Shown here piece after piece: positions 25,360 to 62,761 of a stretch of DNA of 64,000 nucleotides. The notes under the pieces were generated by a model. The model saw only the letters and a list, made by a program, of their open reading frames with translations, made no database searches and was not told the origin of the DNA. The position numbers and the translations under genes are program-made. The DNA lies in assembly GCF_000425865.1 (NCBI RefSeq), contig NZ_AUEG01000001.1:496001-560000 (forward strand). The letters run 5' to 3'. Position 1 is the first letter of the stretch; every line of letters starts with the position of its first letter. The stretch comes from Lacticigenium naphthae DSM 19658 (GTDB lineage Bacteria > Bacillota > Bacilli > Lactobacillales > Carnobacteriaceae_A).

Positions 25360-25485
25360 TTCCTCCACACCATTTAAAAATACTTGAAGTCCTTATTATA
25401 CTATTTATTTTAAATTATTAAAGTAGTCCTTACTATCTACTTAGACAAAGATTTAAATAAGCTAAAACCCCATACAAAAAAGAAC

Positions 25486-25591
25486 GCTCCAAAAGGCGAA
25501 CAGACCCGAATCCCTGGGCGGATACACGTAGGATAGTCGTAGACTGTCGAAGAGTATTCGTGAAGTGGACGTCGGGTCTGCCTTTTGGAGC
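25486..25591 (+). repeat. Structured palindromic repeat, copy A
   Basis: An 11-bp outer stem (GCTCCAAAAGG / CCTTTTGGAGC), a CGAA bulge on the left, and a 9-bp inner stem CAGACCCGA / TCGGGTCTG. The 3' part of the loop carries GTGAAGTGGACG, shared with copies B and C; the rest of the loop is longer than and unrelated to theirs. About 31 bases beyond it is a GAGAGT/ACTCTC hairpin with a T-run (25623-25659). The 25360-25672 gap holds only this element, that hairpin and the glucosaminidase promoter region. Confidence 0.8.
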
Positions 25592-25622
25592 CTGTTCCAG
25601 AAAATAATAGGTATTTAAAATC

Positions 25623-25659
25623 GAGAGTCCTGAAATTTTTCCTCACTCTCTTCGTTTTT
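25623..25659 (+). terminator. Terminator-like hairpin after repeat copy A
   Basis: GAGAGT/ACTCTC stem with a 16-nt loop, then TTCGTTTTT. On the minus strand it could instead serve the 25.7-26.2 kb gene. It occupies the same relative place as the terminators after copies B and C. Confidence 0.45.
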
Positions 25660-25672
25660 GATTGGGGGACGC

Positions 25673-26197
25673 TTATTTTATTATAGTTAATTCAAAGAGG
25701 TTTTCATTTATCCATTCCAACAACTCTTTTTTCTTCATCTCTAATGGTTTGCGTTCAATATTAGCTAGTCTAAATTCAATGCGATCTTTGTAACTCCAAA
25801 AGTCGTAATTTACCTCAATTCGGAGTAGTTGACTAGATTCTCTTCTGCTTGATGATTCTTCTTCATCTTCTTGAATAAATTCCACGTGAGCAATTCCGTT
25901 CTTTATCCATTTTTGTGCAACATGGACTTTCATGTTTACAAATTCCTCTATAGGATTCATTTTGACTTCAGGAATTATATCAGCATTCCGTGCGACTTTC
26001 TTCACCAACATCCCCTCATAATCAGTAAATAGCGTCATTATCTTTTCGATGTTCTCATTTCTTAAACCTTGCTCTCCTTTTTTCCAACGATCCCAACTTT
26101 GAGGGGAAATATTTAATTGCGATTGATAGAAAGCTTTTTCGGAAGTATATTTTTCTTTTATCGTGTAAACGACTATAGCTACAAAAGCTTCATTCAT
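25673..26197 (-). CDS. Uncharacterised protein with a Cro-like N-terminal HTH
   Basis: A 174-residue protein I do not recognise. Residues ~18-52 (QLNISPQSWDRWKKGEQGLRN) look like a Cro/XRE-type helix-turn-helix; the rest is charged and mixed alpha/beta. It may be a small regulator. The ATG at 26197 has AGGAG eight bases upstream; a GTG three codons earlier overlaps that site. It has a good promoter of its own and is transcribed away from the oxidoreductase gene. Confidence 0.7.
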   Translation of the reverse strand: MNEAFVAIVVYTIKEKYTSEKAFYQSQLNISPQSWDRWKKGEQGLRNENIEKIMTLFTDYEGMLVKKVARNADIIPEVKMNPIEEFVNMKVHVAQKWIKNGIAHVEFIQEDEEESSSRRESSQLLRIEVNYDFWSYKDRIEFRLANIERKPLEMKKKELLEWINENLFELTIIK

Positions 26198-26230
26198 GAT
26201 CCTCACTCCTAAACTGGTTTCTTTTCTTTT

Positions 26231-26258: not shown

Positions 26259-26334
26259 TCGGATTGTTTCCCCTTTCAATCTATTTTGGTAAGATGTAAA
26301 TGACATGAGAAATTTAAGTAGGAGGAAAAGAAAA

Positions 26335-27312
26335 ATGAGAAAAATCAAATGGGGAATAATTGGGTTAGGAGATATCGCTCATAGTTTTGCTGAAAATTTT
26401 TCAGTTGAAAATGCAGAACTCGTCGCAGTCGGTTCTAGAAATCTCCAAAAGGCGCAGGATTTTGCAGAAAAACATGCAATACCTAAGGCTTACGGAAGCT
26501 ATGAAGGGTGTTTTTATGATCCTGACATTGATGTTATCTACATTGCTACACCCAATAGTTTTCACTACGAACATATTCTAGCAGCATTAAAACAGAAGAA
26601 ACATGTTTTTAGCGAAAAAGCGATGATGGTCAATTACAGTGAGTTTACGGAAGCTATCAACTGTGCAAAGGAAAATAATGTTCTATTAGCAGAAGCTATG
26701 ACAATTTACCATATGCCTCTGTATCAATTGTTGAAAAAGAAAATCCAACAAAATGATTTCGGCAAACTGAAAATGGTGCATGCTTTATTTGGTAGCTACA
26801 AACCTGCTGATGAGAACAATCGTTTCTTCAATCCGGATTTAGGTGGGGGAGCTTTACTTGATATTGGCGTTTATGCACTCAGTTTCATTCGTTACTTCAT
26901 GAGTAGTAATCCAGATATCTTATCTACGACGGTTGATTTATACCCTACAGGTGTGGATGAGCAATCTAGTACTTTACTAAAAAACAAAGAAAATGAAGTG
27001 GGGACCCTGTCTTTATCTTTCCGAGCAAAGATGCCCAAACAAGGTGTAATCGTTTGTGAAGATGCATACATCACTATCACTGATTATCCACGTGCAGACA
27101 AAGCTACTATTACCTATTCAAACGGAAAATCCGAAACTATCACTGCGGGAGATACTAAAGAAGCTATGAAATATGAAATACAAGCATTCACGGATGCAGT
27201 TGCAAACGATTCTTCCGGACCTTATATGGATTTGACTGAAGATGTAACTAAAATAATGGATACACTTTCTCGGGAGTGGGACATGAATTTAAGTAAGCAC
27301 AAACCCTTTTAA
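26335..27312 (+). CDS. Gfo/Idh/MocA-family NAD(P)-dependent oxidoreductase
   Basis: A 325-residue dehydrogenase with an N-terminal Rossmann fold (WGIIGLGDIAHSFAENF) and the family's EKAM-type lysine (HVFSEKAMM, normally EKP), followed by the C-terminal substrate-binding domain starting GGGALLDIGVYAL. Members oxidise sugars, inositols or related compounds; the substrate is not predictable here. AGGAGG lies nine bases before the ATG at 26335; an upstream ATG at 26305 lacks a site. Monocistronic. Confidence 0.9.
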   Translation: MRKIKWGIIGLGDIAHSFAENFSVENAELVAVGSRNLQKAQDFAEKHAIPKAYGSYEGCFYDPDIDVIYIATPNSFHYEHILAALKQKKHVFSEKAMMVNYSEFTEAINCAKENNVLLAEAMTIYHMPLYQLLKKKIQQNDFGKLKMVHALFGSYKPADENNRFFNPDLGGGALLDIGVYALSFIRYFMSSNPDILSTTVDLYPTGVDEQSSTLLKNKENEVGTLSLSFRAKMPKQGVIVCEDAYITITDYPRADKATITYSNGKSETITAGDTKEAMKYEIQAFTDAVANDSSGPYMDLTEDVTKIMDTLSREWDMNLSKHKPF

Positions 27313-27323
27313 CAAAGATAAAA

Positions 27324-27347
27324 AGGCTGGGGAAAAAGTCCCAGCCT
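27324..27347 (-). terminator. Terminator hairpin AGGCTGGG/CCCAGCCT after repeat copy B
   Basis: An 8-bp GC-rich stem with an 8-nt loop. On the minus strand it is followed by TTTTTATC, so it would end a transcript of copy B; on the plus strand the flanking A-run means it may also help end the oxidoreductase transcript. The same hairpin, with a longer stem, follows copy C at 60.6 kb. Confidence 0.65.
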
Positions 27348-27379
27348 CTAATCATTTCACATACTTTACTTTCTAAAAC

Positions 27380-27460
27380 GTGCTCAAAAAAACAGACCCG
27401 ACTGCCACTTCACGGATAAAATATGTGGAGCTCTATTCGGGTCTGAACGTTTTTTTCCAC
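27380..27460 (-). repeat. Structured palindromic repeat, copy B
   Basis: Read on the minus strand: GTGG, seven As, CGTT bulge, CAGACCCGA, an ATAGAG-type inner stem with GU wobbles, then CCGTGAAGTGGCAG, TCGGGTCTG, seven Ts and a closing CAC. It matches copy C along the whole element and for a further stretch (GTTTTAGAAAGTAAAGT) up to the terminator hairpin. It lies between two convergent genes. Confidence 0.82.
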
Positions 27461-27483
27461 TCTCTTTTTTCTTCTTCCAAGCA

Positions 27484-28146
27484 CTATTCTTTGTCTACTG
27501 GTGTAGTTGCAATAGAATTTTTAACTGAATACCCTTCATAACGTAATAATTCTTCAATTTCACTTGCGTCCTCAGTATCTAGTTGAATGGTCACCTCAGA
27601 AAAATCCTTGGCAATACGATGAACATAAATATGCGTAATACTCGTATTTGATTCAGCTAAAATATTAGTTATATCTTCTAATATCCCAGGATGATCTTCA
27701 GGAATATCCAAGATCAAACGTGAGCCTCGTTCATTGTAGCCAGTCAAATCAATAAAAGCTTTAAAGACATCTTTATCTGTGATAATACCAATCACATGAT
27801 TTTCTTCATCTACAACTGGTAAAACGCCTATATTGTTATCACTCATAATAGTTGCTGCTTCTTCTATTAAGGTATCTTTTGAAACAGTCTTCACATCTTT
27901 AGTCATGATTTGAGAAACCGTTGTTTTCGTAAGTAGATAATTTATTTCATGGATACTCATTTTATTCGCACGGGCAGGAGAATTTTCCAAAACTATTCCT
28001 TCTGATATCAAGCCAATTAATTTCCCATCACGAACTATTGGCAACCGATGAAAGTTATTCCCTTCCATGATATCTAAAGCATCCAGTACCCTAGTATCCT
28101 CACTAACAGTGATAACATCTTTTGTCATATAGTGTTCCACATACAT
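27484..28146 (-). CDS. CBS-pair plus ACT domain protein (AcuB-like)
   Basis: A 220-residue protein: two CBS motifs (about 1-60 and 70-135) that usually bind adenine nucleotides, followed by an ACT-like domain (about 140-210, starting GSRLILDIPEDHPGILEDIT) that usually binds an amino acid. Such proteins sense cell energy or metabolite state; AcuB of Bacillus is the closest named relative, but there is no acetoin cluster here. GGAGG lies seven bases before the ATG. Confidence 0.85.
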   Translation of the reverse strand: MYVEHYMTKDVITVSEDTRVLDALDIMEGNNFHRLPIVRDGKLIGLISEGIVLENSPARANKMSIHEINYLLTKTTVSQIMTKDVKTVSKDTLIEEAATIMSDNNIGVLPVVDEENHVIGIITDKDVFKAFIDLTGYNERGSRLILDIPEDHPGILEDITNILAESNTSITHIYVHRIAKDFSEVTIQLDTEDASEIEELLRYEGYSVKNSIATTPVDKE

Positions 28147-59581: not shown

Positions 59582-60403
59582 ATGTTAATTGAAATTATAA
59601 AATCCATTATTTTGGGGATCGTCCAAGGTATCTCAGAATGGTTGCCTATTAGTAGCACAGGACACATGATCCTTGTCGAAGAATTTATCACCTTGAATGT
59701 CTCCGCTGAATTTAAAGAAATGTTTTTTGTAGTAATTCAACTTGCATCTATACTTGCTGTTATTCTCATTTTTTTTCACAAATTAAATCCTTTTTCACCT
59801 ACCAAAGATGATAGTGAGAAAAAAGAGACTTGGGACATTTGGAAAAAAGTTATTATCGGGGTAATTCCAGCCGGAGTTTTTGGACTGTTGTTCGAGGATG
59901 TAATCAATGAAAAATTTTATAATTGGCAAACTGTTGCTTTTACCCTTATTCTGTACGGGGTTTTATTTATAATAATTGAAAACAAAAACGAAGGACGAGA
60001 ACCAAAGATTCAAACATTTGCAGATTTAACATATAAAACTGCTTTGATCATTGGGCTGTTCCAAGTCCTCGCCTTAATACCCGGTACATCACGTTCTGGT
60101 GCAACTATTGTTGGGGCTATTTTAATAGGTACGGCACGTCCAATAGCTGCTGAGTATTCATTCTTTTTGTCTATTCCAGTAATGGTCGGCGCAAGTGCTT
60201 TAAAACTTCTTGGATTCGGTTTTAGTTTTACAAGTTTAGAATTAGCTGTCCTTATTAGTGGAATGCTCGTTTCGTTTTTCGTATCCGTTTTTGCTATTAC
60301 ATTCTTAATGAATTATATTCGCAAAAATGATTTTAAAGTGTTTGGCTGGTACAGGATCGGTTTGGGCGTTCTCCTCTTTGCTTATTTCTTCATAATCGGA
60401 TAA
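59582..60403 (+). CDS. uppP: Undecaprenyl-diphosphate phosphatase
   Basis: A 273-residue BacA-type membrane enzyme with about eight TM helices that dephosphorylates undecaprenyl diphosphate so the lipid carrier can be reused for wall precursors. The active-site motifs are [14 protein letters not shown] at about 17-30 and [10 protein letters not shown] at about 160-170. AAGGGAG precedes the ATG. Over-expression gives bacitracin tolerance in other species. Confidence 0.95.
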
Positions 60404-60462
60404 GAATATAAATCTAGACTGAAAAATTCTAAGTAGTCTTTAAAATTGGATACCTCAAAAGA

Positions 60463-60547
60463 GAGCGGGACAAAAAACGTTTAGACCCGAATAGAGCTCC
60501 GCATACTCTATCCGTGAAGTGGCCGTCAGGTCTGTTTTTTGGAGCTC
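60463..60547 (+). repeat. Structured palindromic repeat, copy C
   Basis: GAGC/GCTC and CAAAAAA/TTTTTTG outer stems, a CGTT bulge, inner stem TAGACCCGA / TCAGGTCTG (one U-G wobble, one mismatch), an ATAGAG/CTCTAT hairpin and the strand CCGTGAAGTGGCCG. Nearly identical to copy B, including the sequence after it (GTTTTAGAAAGTAAAGT). Confidence 0.82.
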
Positions 60548-60570
60548 GTTTTAGAAAGTAAAGTTTGGAA

Positions 60571-60615
60571 AAAAAAGGTAAGGCTGGGACTTTTGTCCCA
60601 GCCTTACCTTTTTTT
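60571..60615 (+). terminator. Terminator after repeat copy C
   Basis: A 20-bp perfect stem with a TTTT loop, its GC-rich core being AAGGCTGGGAC / GTCCCAGCCTT, bounded by A- and T-runs so it works in both directions. It could terminate uppP or a transcript of copy C. Confidence 0.85.
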
Positions 60616-60733
60616 CCAAAGAACCTAAAGTAAACTATCTATCTATTTATTATTGACCAATCAGTTTGTTCCTACTTTCAGTAGATACTACCCTAGATCT
60701 ATTTGCTGTCAAATTAGGTTTTGCCTATGCCTG

Positions 60734-60759: not shown

Positions 60760-60800
60760 TTTTGATTAAGTACAAATTGTGTATGTTGAAATCTGTTCTC

Positions 60801-60833
60801 ATTCTCAATTAGGTCTTATGTATTCTCAATTAG
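60801..60833. repeat. Direct repeat ATTCTCAATTAG, 21-bp period
   Basis: Two identical 12-mers at 60801-60812 and 60822-60833. Their spacing is two turns of the helix, so a dimer could bind both on one face. They lie 60-90 bases before the ATPase start and may be operator sites; this is inference. Confidence 0.5.
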
Positions 60834-60892
60834 CTGATGTATGTGCTACAGTATGGTTAAGATATCAGCATATTTCTAGGAAGGAAATGTCT

Positions 60893-62761
60893 ATGTATAC
60901 ATTATTCAAAGAAAACAAACCCATGATCGCTACAATAATAAGTGGAATTCTCATTTTATTCGGAATCTTTTTAAGTTATGTAATTTCATCAAATTTAGCT
61001 CCTTTCATTTTCGTTCTTTCTTTCATCATAGGAGGCTACCATCAAGCTAAAGAAGGCTTCTATGAAACGTTTAAAGAAAAACGTTTGAACGTAGATATAT
61101 TAATGGTTCTTGCCGCTATTGGTGCTTCAATCATAGGCTATTGGATGGAAGGAGCTCTTCTTATCTTTATCTTTTCATTGAGTGGATCTCTGGAAATTAT
61201 GGCAACAAATAAAAGTACCCAGGCAATTACGGATCTAATGAATGTAACTCCTAATACTGCCAAACTTATTTTACCCGATCAAACTATTAAAGAAGTTTCC
61301 ACCGAATCATTAGAAGTTGGAAATAAAATTCTGGTTCCAAAAGGGAGTACTATCCCAATTGACAGCTATCTTATCAAAGGAGACGGCTTGATCGATGAAT
61401 CTTCTATCACTGGAGAATCTATTCCTTCTCAAAAAAAAATCGGAGATGAATTAATTGGTGGAACATTAAATTTAAGCCATGCTCTGACATTAGAAGTAGC
61501 AGTTGACTCTTCCAACACTTTATTTGCAAAGATAATTCGCATGGTAGAAGAAGCACAAGGAACTCCTTCAAAAACAGCAACTCTAATTGAAAAAATCGAA
61601 AATAAATATGTGGTAGGCGTCTTGATTTTGGTCCCTCTCATGATTGCTTTGTTTTATTTTGGTTTGAACTGGACATGGAATGAATCTTTTTATCGTGGTA
61701 TGGTCCTCCTTACTGTTGCATCTCCATGCGCCTTAGTTGCTTCAGCCACCCCGGCAACTCTGTCAGCAATATCAAATGGGGCTAAAAAAGGTATTTTATT
61801 CAAAGGGGGAGCATACCTAGAAAATTTCAGTCAAATAAAAGCTATTGCATTCGACAAAACTGGTACTTTAACCAAAGGAGAACCATCCGTCACAGATAGT
61901 AACTATCTATCAGACGAAAATGTACTTGAGGTTGATAAGCTAGTACTTGCCCTTGAAAAAACCACTACCCACCCATTGGGACACGCTATTGTCACTTATT
62001 TAATCGATAAAAAAACGGTCAACATCGAGTTAGAATCAAGCCAGGAAGTCACCGGTAAGGGAATTGAAGGGTTTTATAAAGGAAATCAATGGAAAATTGG
62101 GAAACTTGACTATATTTCACCTGAAAAAAACCATCCGCTCTTGAAAGAAGCACATGAAAAACAAAAAGAAGGAAAAACGGTAACTTTCGTCAGTAAAAAT
62201 AACGCATTAGTCGCTTTCTTTGCCTTGATGGATGTGCCGAAAAATAATGCTAAAGAAACAGTTGCTTTTTTCAAATCAAAGAACATTCGGACAATTCTGA
62301 TCACTGGAGATAATGAAGCAACCGGGAAATCTGTAGGAGAAACGTTAGGTGTGGATGAAACATATGCAAATTATTTACCCGACCAAAAAGCTGATTTAAT
62401 CAAAGAATTAAAAGATAAGTATGAAATTATCGCAATGGTCGGTGATGGAACAAATGACGCACCGGCTTTAGCGAACGCCTCAATTGGAGTAGCCATGGGA
62501 GCTGGGACGGATATAGCTATAGATGTAGCGGATGTAGTGTTGATGCAAGATGACATCAGTCAATTGCCTTATAGCTTCAATCTTTCAAATCGTTTAAGAA
62601 GGATTACACTACAAAATATTGTTTTTTCTTTAGCTGTTATTTTCATATTGATCACTGCTAATTTAATTCAAGTTATTAATTTACCGCTAGGGGTAATTGG
62701 ACATGAGGGCAGTACAATATTGGTAATATTAAATGGACTACGTCTTCTAAAAAAGAAATAA
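60893..62761 (+). CDS. P1B-4-type heavy-metal ATPase (Fe/Co/Zn exporter, ZosA/PfeT-like)
   Basis: A 622-residue P-type ATPase. There is no N-terminal metal-binding domain. The actuator motif TGES, the phosphorylation site DKTGT (Asp321) and the hinge GDGTNDAPAL are intact. Metal specificity: SPC at 277-279 in TM6 (not CPC) and HEGST at 604-608 in the last TM, the P1B-4 signature found in CoaT, PfeT, FrvA and PmtA, which export Fe2+, Co2+ or Zn2+. The ATG at 60893 has AAGG eight bases upstream; the 38 extra codons of the frame contain the direct repeats and are not coding. Confidence 0.9.
   Translation: MYTLFKENKPMIATIISGILILFGIFLSYVISSNLAPFIFVLSFIIGGYHQAKEGFYETFKEKRLNVDILMVLAAIGASIIGYWMEGALLIFIFSLSGSLEIMATNKSTQAITDLMNVTPNTAKLILPDQTIKEVSTESLEVGNKILVPKGSTIPIDSYLIKGDGLIDESSITGESIPSQKKIGDELIGGTLNLSHALTLEVAVDSSNTLFAKIIRMVEEAQGTPSKTATLIEKIENKYVVGVLILVPLMIALFYFGLNWTWNESFYRGMVLLTVASPCALVASATPATLSAISNGAKKGILFKGGAYLENFSQIKAIAFDKTGTLTKGEPSVTDSNYLSDENVLEVDKLVLALEKTTTHPLGHAIVTYLIDKKTVNIELESSQEVTGKGIEGFYKGNQWKIGKLDYISPEKNHPLLKEAHEKQKEGKTVTFVSKNNALVAFFALMDVPKNNAKETVAFFKSKNIRTILITGDNEATGKSVGETLGVDETYANYLPDQKADLIKELKDKYEIIAMVGDGTNDAPALANASIGVAMGAGTDIAIDVADVVLMQDDISQLPYSFNLSNRLRRITLQNIVFSLAVIFILITANLIQVINLPLGVIGHEGSTILVILNGLRLLKKK

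What the first reader, a model, noticed from the sequence alone, without database searches (positions are those of the whole stretch)
25486..25659. Three-copy structured intergenic element with covarying stems: possible new RNA family
Copies at 25486-25591 (+), 27380-27460 (-) and 60463-60547 (+) share an inner CAGACCCGA/TCGGGTCTG stem, a 4-nt asymmetric bulge CGAA/CGTT at exactly the same place, and a GTGAAGTGG strand on the 3' side. The outer stems differ in sequence but stay paired: CCAAAAGG/CCTTTTGG in A, seven A/T pairs in B, CAAAAAA/TTTTTTG in C. In copy B the inner ATAGAG stem survives through GU wobbles, and in copy C the first pair of the main stem becomes U-G. This compensatory change supports selection on RNA (or single-stranded DNA) structure. 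I do not recognise it as a named RNA class.
Basis: seen in the sequence. Interest (0 to 1): 0.75.

Follow-up and report, generated by a model that had tools for sequence, protein, structure and literature searches.

The report
Terminator-invading repeats in lactic-acid bacteria
The three matching hairpins are copies of a small dispersed DNA element, found in many lactic-acid-type bacteria, that settles inside the hairpins which end transcription and keeps its fold while its letters change; it resembles a kind of repeat described before in Enterococcus faecalis.

Summary
The three copies are 3 of 33 places in this 2.13 Mb genome. A covariance model finds relatives in 56 of 395 Lactobacillales genomes, 23 of 80 genera, with strong covariation (31 of 35 pairs; 0 of 500 shuffles) and no Rfam match. 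The best reading is not a fixed RNA gene but a modular, dispersed, apparently mobile element. Copies lie at gene 3' ends (51 convergent, 49 tandem, 1 divergent of 101). At five insertion loci chosen for clear arms, 22 of 29 orthologous sites read in relatives hold a plain terminator-like hairpin; at the clearest, its outer arms survive at the element's ends. I recall this behaviour for EFAR, the miniature insertion sequences of E. faecalis (paper not held). Two own copies have one hairpin arm rewritten to match the other, so paired changes alone do not prove selection on RNA. What moves the element is unknown; Y1 transposase is absent from 15 of 21 element-rich genomes, this one included.

The parts
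25480..25600 (+). Copy A: core with inner hairpin M2 (left end rewritten, no M1, no terminal GGCTGGGAC hairpin). Lies about 75-80 nt after the stop codon of the ORF 25673-26206 (-)
   Evidence: (117.2 bits)
25501..25509 (+). 5' strand of the main stem CAGACCCGA in copy A (partner 25572-25580)
25572..25580 (+). 3' strand of the main stem TCGGGTCTG in copy A
27322..27464 (-). Copy B: left end GAGAGTGG at 27464-27457, core (model match 27461-27373), shortened inside, terminal hairpin at 27349-27322; between convergent ORFs 26305-27312 (+) and 27484-28146 (-)
27322..27349 (-). Terminal hairpin of copy B (GGCTGGGAC-type), flagged as terminator-like on the - strand
60461..60620 (+). Copy C: left end GAGAGCGGGAC at 60461, core (model match 60466-60554), shortened inside like B, terminal hairpin with arms 60565-60590/60595-60620; between ORF 59582-60403 (+) and ORF 60779-62761 (+)
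60565..60620 (+). Terminal hairpin of copy C: 26-nt arms, 92% complementary, A-run on the left and T-run on the right. The simple terminator scan did not list it

Best explanation
The copies belong to a family of small (133-303 bp where both ends are present), modular, non-coding, apparently mobile elements of Lactobacillales that invade transcription terminators. Shown by comparison: complete elements have a left end (GAGAGYGGGACAAAA), a long stem with a nearly invariant 4-nt bulge and a GGA/GAAGTGG internal loop, 0 to 3 exchangeable inner hairpins, a right module and a terminator-like hairpin; copies sit at gene 3' ends; at the clearest compared loci related genomes carry a plain terminator-like hairpin at the same place, and the outer arms of that hairpin remain at the element's ends. 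Inferred: new copies arise by insertion of an element, as single-stranded or extruded-hairpin DNA, into the hairpin of an existing terminator, replacing its loop and inner stem. Because the element carries its own terminal hairpin and leaves the A-run/T-run arms in place, termination is probably preserved and the insertion nearly harmless. Hairpin arms are then kept complementary both by selection on the fold and by copying of one arm from the other (template switching). What catalyses the movement is unknown. It works like EFAR of Enterococcus faecalis as I recall it; common descent with EFAR is likely but was not tested by sequence.
For: 33 places in the own genome, 8 of them near full length and 89-100% identical to the query copy. 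Identical cores in different surroundings: 9 of the 9 copies read in G151; 6 of 9 in G213, the same core also in 2 of 9 in G265. In a tree of 98 copies, 6 of 11 genomes with three or more copies form exact clades (own 10, G151 9, G360 6, G376 7, G003 3, G033 5). Context: of 126 copies 25 unclear, 51 convergent, 49 tandem, 1 divergent; convergent and divergent gaps are equally many in a circular genome, so 51 to 1 is far from chance (p 2e-14). Orthologous sites read: L281 8 of 8 relatives have an A-run/hairpin/T-run there; L280 7 of 12 (1 more has an element there, 4 have other sequence); L283 5 of 7 have a hairpin in the gap, arms less clear; L222 1 of 1 with the same arms GCGATG/CATCGC; L221 1 of 1 readable on both sides, a hairpin with other arms. 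Left and right flanks of the same copy are complementary beyond the A/T-run background: 74 copies, p 0.0015. Covariation. Terminal hairpin.
Against: The flank test was designed after the pattern had been seen in part of the first set. A second set repeated it weakly (24 of 40 copies usable; p 0.045 overall, 0.11 shuffled within genomes; G360 alone 0.013; nothing in G190 and G376), and own copies show no excess (p 0.21). Empty sites come from other species, not strains; the five loci were picked for clear arms out of twelve prepared. In the tree, copies of G090 are scattered, G190's clade holds one G093 copy, and G213, G265 and G304 mix. No target-site duplication and no transposase was found; insertion and termination were not measured. 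No site of the own genome could be compared, because no genome of its genus turned up among the relatives searched.
Confidence: 0.8

Rival explanations
1. A conserved structured RNA (trans-acting sRNA or cis-acting 3'-UTR element) with a cellular function, multiplied by duplication; structure is kept by selection on the RNA.
For: 31 of 35 pairs with changes on both sides and 92.9% of cells paired against 76.0% in shuffles and 35-45% in slid versions; nearly invariant bulge and internal loop inside variable stems; G-U cells over A-C cells 63 to 18, or 30 to 15 without two columns, so one strand matters more; the terminal hairpin could end such a transcript.
Against: Up to tens of copies per genome, with identical cores in different places in some genomes; many internally deleted or extended copies; patchy presence, 56 of 395 genomes; sites that hold plain hairpins in relatives. 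No expression data were available.
Confidence: 0.15
2. MITE of a classical DD(E/D) insertion sequence, or a REP-type element moved by a Y1 (IS200/RAYT) transposase.
For: Complementarity of the left GGGACAAAA and right TTTTGTCCC ends in copy C; a hairpin with conserved unpaired bases, which I recall for hairpins bound by Y1 transposases.
Against: Y1_Tnp is found in 6 of 21 element-rich and 7 of 22 comparison genomes, and not in the own genome, G151 or G360. No target-site duplication visible by eye. No transposase-like ORF recognised by eye between the paired own copies on contig 6. DD(E/D) transposases were not searched.
Confidence: 0.1
3. BOX-type modular repeat in the sense of the pneumococcal BOX elements.
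For: Same style: end modules with a variable number of inner modules, over-represented between convergent genes (Croucher et al., PMC3049150, passages; compare).
Against: No sequence comparison with BOX was made; the present elements end in a terminator-like hairpin and sit in terminators, which the passages read do not report for BOX.
Confidence: 0.08
4. Pairing and paired changes come only from mutation by template switching at imperfect palindromes, without selection for structure.
For: In the own genome the inner hairpin M2 pairs perfectly from the loop over 18 of 18 bp in L022 and 17 of 19 in L035, in opposite directions, against 7 of 18 in the six other full copies; copy A's left outer arm is the complement of its right arm beyond the family stem.
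Against: Does not explain a nearly invariant bulge and internal loop that stay unpaired inside covarying stems across 32 genomes, nor G-U over A-C (cells not independent).
Confidence: 0.1

Closest known systems
EFAR, Enterococcus faecalis repeats (Venditti et al. 2007, FEMS Microbiol Lett; recalled, paper not held)
   Same: As recalled: palindromic miniature insertion sequences, mostly about 170 bp, variable assembly of sequence modules, two stem-loops side by side; empty sites are unrelated stem-loop sequences, most of the stem-loop is lost on insertion and parts of its stem stay at the element's ends. The like was seen here in other genomes.
   Different: EFAR letters were not available, so sequence kinship is untested; EFAR, as recalled, was described in one species, while the present family has model hits in 23 of 80 genera searched and a bulge conserved across the order.
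Efa-1 stem-loop family of E. faecalis (Cozzuto et al. 2008, PMC2267715; passages and one section read)
   Same: Listed as length 163, '65 (18)' members, type I, a pair of adjacent stem-loops.
   Different: No sequence in the text read; possibly the same elements as EFAR (my inference).
BOX, RUP and SPRITE of Streptococcus pneumoniae (Croucher et al. 2011, PMC3049150; passages)
   Same: BOX: end modules plus variable inner modules, predicted to fold as RNA; SPRITE: terminator-like repeat; over-represented between convergent genes and regarded as non-autonomous mobile elements.
   Different: Insertion into existing terminators with retained arms is not reported in the passages read; no sequence comparison made.
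REP/RAYT and IS200/IS605 ends (recalled)
   Same: Imperfect hairpin DNA with conserved unpaired bases.
   Different: Y1 transposase missing in 15 of 21 element-rich genomes.

Membership tests
EFAR-type miniature insertion sequence | Dispersed, modular, intergenic palindromic repeat of variable length, mostly about 170 bp (feature recalled) | tested here: met
   33 places in own genome; 133-303 bp between aligned ends in the 43 copies printed; modules present or absent
EFAR-type miniature insertion sequence | Two independent stem-loops in one element (recalled) | tested here: met
   Long core hairpin plus terminal GGCTGGGAC...GTCCCAGCC hairpin; copy A lacks the second, as do some others (6 of 80, 16 of 40 had none recognised)
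EFAR-type miniature insertion sequence | Empty sites are stem-loops; stem arms retained at the element's ends (recalled) | tested here: met
   Between species only: clear at L281, L280 and L222, less clear at L283, hairpin but other arms at L221. Not tested in the own genome
EFAR-type miniature insertion sequence | Sequence similarity to EFAR of E. faecalis V583 | not testable with these tools
   No E. faecalis chromosome could be named or searched; model R1 finds nothing in the first 50 kb of plasmid pTEF1
Rfam RNA family | Match at gathering score | tested here: not met
   0 matches in the window; in 7 further loci only a tRNA
REP/RAYT or IS200/IS605-derived element | Y1 transposase in the genome | tested here: not met
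   Absent from own genome and from 15 of 21 element-rich genomes; present in the other 6
Classical IS-derived MITE | Target-site duplication and ends shared with an autonomous element | tested here: inconclusive
   No duplication seen by eye in the flanks printed; autonomous partner not searched
BOX element | boxA/boxB/boxC sequence | not tested
   No BOX sequence compared

The most novel reading that the evidence does not exclude
An order-wide family of terminator parasites: hairpin elements with a nearly invariant bulge that are recognised and copied into other terminator hairpins by an unidentified host or viral activity, without a dedicated Y1 transposase, possibly by template switching at stalled forks, so that terminators of many lactic-acid bacteria have been repeatedly replaced by copies of one mobile fold.
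Probability: 0.25. Interest if true: 0.75.

Novelty: new member of a known kind. Interest (0 to 1): 0.5.

Why it matters
It would turn what I recall as a one-species curiosity (EFAR) into an order-wide family with a searchable covariance model. It gives a case where strong covariation goes with a mobile DNA element and partly with arm-copying mutation, a warning for covariation-based RNA discovery. And it makes an open question testable: how a small element without genes of its own finds and replaces terminator hairpins. In lactobacilli, carnobacteria and aerococci such elements may deserve annotation as terminator-borne repeats rather than as unknown RNAs.

Tried and rejected
Rfam at gathering score for the window and 7 loci: nothing but a tRNA. 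Literature: nine searches with EFAR, palindromic or intergenic repeat, BOX, stem-loop, miniature and terminator terms and one for the hairpin letters GGCTGGGAC (20 of 339 papers listed); of what was listed I followed Cozzuto 2008 (Efa-1), Croucher 2011 (BOX, RUP, SPRITE) and a 2024 MITE review (PMC10969869, passages, no mention of EFAR). That the family is not in print is not claimed: the FEMS paper that I recall is not held.

Plasmid and phage collections: hits in one record only, the 592 kb Aerococcus tenax plasmid record CP127381.1; no match for one G168 copy and one G360 copy in plasmids, none in phages for one G168 copy and one own copy. pTEF1 of E. faecalis V583, first 50 kb: none.

Idea that the inverted own pairs on contig 6 flank a transposase: no transposase-like ORF recognised by eye (no family search made). 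Idea of a Y1 transposase partner: not supported. The 21 element-rich and 22 comparison genomes were my choice; the comparison genomes are not among the listed hits, but one search does not list all genomes without a hit. A first mismatch count for the M2 arms was out of register and was discarded (last lines); one search replaces it.

Dropped rows: 6 of 80 copies and 16 of 40 had no recognised terminal hairpin and were left out of the flank test; 25 of 126 copies had no clear gene on one side; genes there are ORFs found by a simple script, not curated. In one search at most 9 candidates per genome were scored, so copy numbers there are lower bounds, and G151's 9 of 9 are the nine listed. The structure count used one copy from each of 32 of the 56 genomes with hits. 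Of the relatives at L281 and L283, 8 and 7 of 12 genomes were read, because loci were capped; at L280 12 of 12. The pattern hit in an alphaproteobacterial bin (L092) lacks the rest of the element by eye and was treated as chance.

Full report
What was checked. The three copies were read and folded. Stem, bulge and GTGAAGTGG strand are there. Copies A and B fold better than shuffles; copy C alone does not (z -1.0). A model built from 18 copies (10 own, 3 Atopococcus tabaci, 5 G033) places all three in one family; copy A is one of the 18.

The genome. The window is bases 496001-560000 of contig 1 of a 2.13 Mb genome. The model gives 39 hits at E<=0.1, 33 distinct places once antisense duplicates are removed. 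Eight copies are near full length, about 230 bp, 89-100% identical to the query copy. Reading them shows the anatomy: left end GAGAGYGGGACAAAA, stem with bulge, inner hairpin M1 (CTGTATCCGT...ACGGATACAG), inner hairpin M2 (GGATACTC...GAGTGTTC), right module GTGAAGTGGNNGTCGGGTCTG-NTTTTTGGAGC, a linker, and the hairpin GGCTGGGAC-TTTT-GTCCCAGCC. Copies of Atopococcus tabaci and genome G021 have a further inner hairpin, M3. Window copies B and C share one internal shortening; copy A has only M2 and no terminal hairpin.

Distribution. In 27 genomes of the own family, the own one included, 5 have a hit at E<=1e-6; in 395 Lactobacillales genomes 56 have one, in 23 of 80 genera (at most 9 candidates scored per genome). 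Named carriers are Atopococcus tabaci and Carnobacterium jeotgali (the G003 copy read equals the A. tabaci one) and Aerococcus tenax. G168 has 54 and G121 31 hits at E<=1e-5, not cleared of antisense duplicates.

Structure. One copy from each of 32 of the 56 genomes aligns over 123 columns. The consensus has 35 pairs, 31 with at least one change on both sides. Paired cells are 92.9% against 76.0% in column shuffles and 35-45% when slid; cells with double change 163 against 34.6; 0 of 500 shuffles reach any of the five measures. Related sequences inflate such counts, as the tool warns. The bulge after the outer stem and parts of the GGA/GAAGTGG internal loop are among the nearly invariant columns. 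G-U cells outnumber A-C cells 63 to 18, or 30 to 15 without the two columns that hold most of them (p 0.036, cells not independent): one strand seems to matter more.

Arm copying. In the eight full own copies M2 pairs perfectly from the loop over 7 bp in six, but over 18 of 18 in L022 and 17 of 19 in L035; the first has its left arm rewritten, the second its right arm. Copy A of the window likewise has a left outer arm that is the complement of its right arm through GGAGC, where other copies have GGGAC on the left. Replication template switching at imperfect palindromes is known to do this (established knowledge, no call). So part of the 'compensatory change' between the three window copies may be mutational.

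Mobility and target. The nine copies listed for G151 have identical cores; six of nine in G213 are identical to each other and to two of nine in G265, in different surroundings. In a tree of 98 copies, 6 of 11 genomes with three or more copies form exact clades; G190's clade holds one G093 copy, G213, G265 and G304 mix, and G090's copies are scattered. Of 126 copies 101 had a clear ORF on both sides: 51 convergent, 49 tandem, 1 divergent. The left and right flanks of one copy are often complementary. I saw this first in G151 and G213 and then wrote the test: in 74 copies the mean score beats permuted pairs (p 0.0015), carried by G213 (p 0.002) and G151 (p 0.027); own, A. tabaci and the mixed groups show no excess. 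A second set of 24 copies gave p 0.045, or 0.11 within genomes, with G360 at 0.013 and G190, G376 and G265 not significant.

Empty sites. Joined flanks of three G360 loci and two G213 loci were searched in their genera (13 and 6 genomes) and the orthologous stretches read. Locus L281: 8 of 8 relatives read have A-run, CAGGC...GCCTG, T-run, and most have ACGCAA or the like outside it; G360 keeps AACGCAAA and TTTGCGTT and has the element in between. Locus L280: 7 of 12 relatives have ACAGAAATGCTG...CAGCATTTCTGT (or a close variant) with runs; G360 keeps CTAAAAAAAC and GTTTTTTTAG; one relative has another copy of the element; four show other sequence. Locus L283: 5 of 7 read have a hairpin in the gap, arms less clear. 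Locus L222 of G213: the one relative found has GCGATG-loop-CATCGC, and G213 keeps exactly these arms around the element. Locus L221: the one relative readable on both sides has a terminator-like hairpin, but with other arms. That is 22 of 29 sites with a plain hairpin. These loci were chosen for their clear arms, 5 of the 12 prepared.

Mechanism proposed. The element enters the hairpin of a terminator and replaces its loop and inner stem, keeping the outer arms (seen by comparison of species). It brings its own hairpin, so termination probably goes on (inferred). The mover is unknown. Y1 transposases are in 6 of 21 element-rich and 7 of 22 comparison genomes and missing from the own genome, G151 and G360, so they are not required in the genomes as sequenced.

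Comparison. I recall EFAR of E. faecalis as miniature insertion sequences of mostly 170 bp, modular, with two stem-loops, whose empty sites are stem-loops that are mostly lost with stem parts kept at the ends. The paper is not held and its letters could not be tested. Held papers seen in part: Cozzuto 2008 lists Efa-1 of E. faecalis, length 163, a pair of adjacent stem-loops; Croucher 2011 describes BOX, RUP and SPRITE. The finding is thus most likely a broad relative of a known kind of element, not a new class of RNA.

Noticed in passing
G000 contigs C1:16734, C2:212281, C3:52676, C4:167850, C9:67998, C12:51149, C18:25334, C21:317, C29:7948, C13:45910, C19:6451 (outside the window): A 15-nt motif CCTACGTTTAGTCAA occurs 9 times exactly and twice with one mismatch in the own genome (reversed control 0) and points outward from a terminator-like hairpin or an element end in 9 of 11 places, after short remnants in the other 2; it is also at element ends in A. 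tabaci (3 of 3) and behind a hairpin in G021. Five own and three A. tabaci cases stand before a repeated stretch at contig ends that may lead into rRNA operons (guess).
   Followed up: partly
L074 from about 1737 (G000 contig C12 near its end): Directly behind the terminal hairpin of one copy starts GTGCGCCCGGCATGGGTGACAAC, which I recall as the 5' end of class C group II introns, known to settle behind terminators; it would mark the hairpin as a terminator. Not searched in Rfam.
   Followed up: no
G028 C1:1615339-1615912; G168 C1:3011033-3011392: Tandem arrays of 5 and 3 element cores at spacings of about 115 and 122 nt in other genomes.
   Followed up: no
L316 (G304): The relative's intergenic stretch at the L222 locus also holds three direct copies of another hairpin, CGCACTCAAAT...ATTTGAGTGCG or a close variant, a different repeat.
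   Followed up: no
L306 and L309 (genus of G360) and the left flank of L282: A further repeat rich in CTCCGG...CCGGAG hairpins lies in intergenic stretches of this genus.
   Followed up: no
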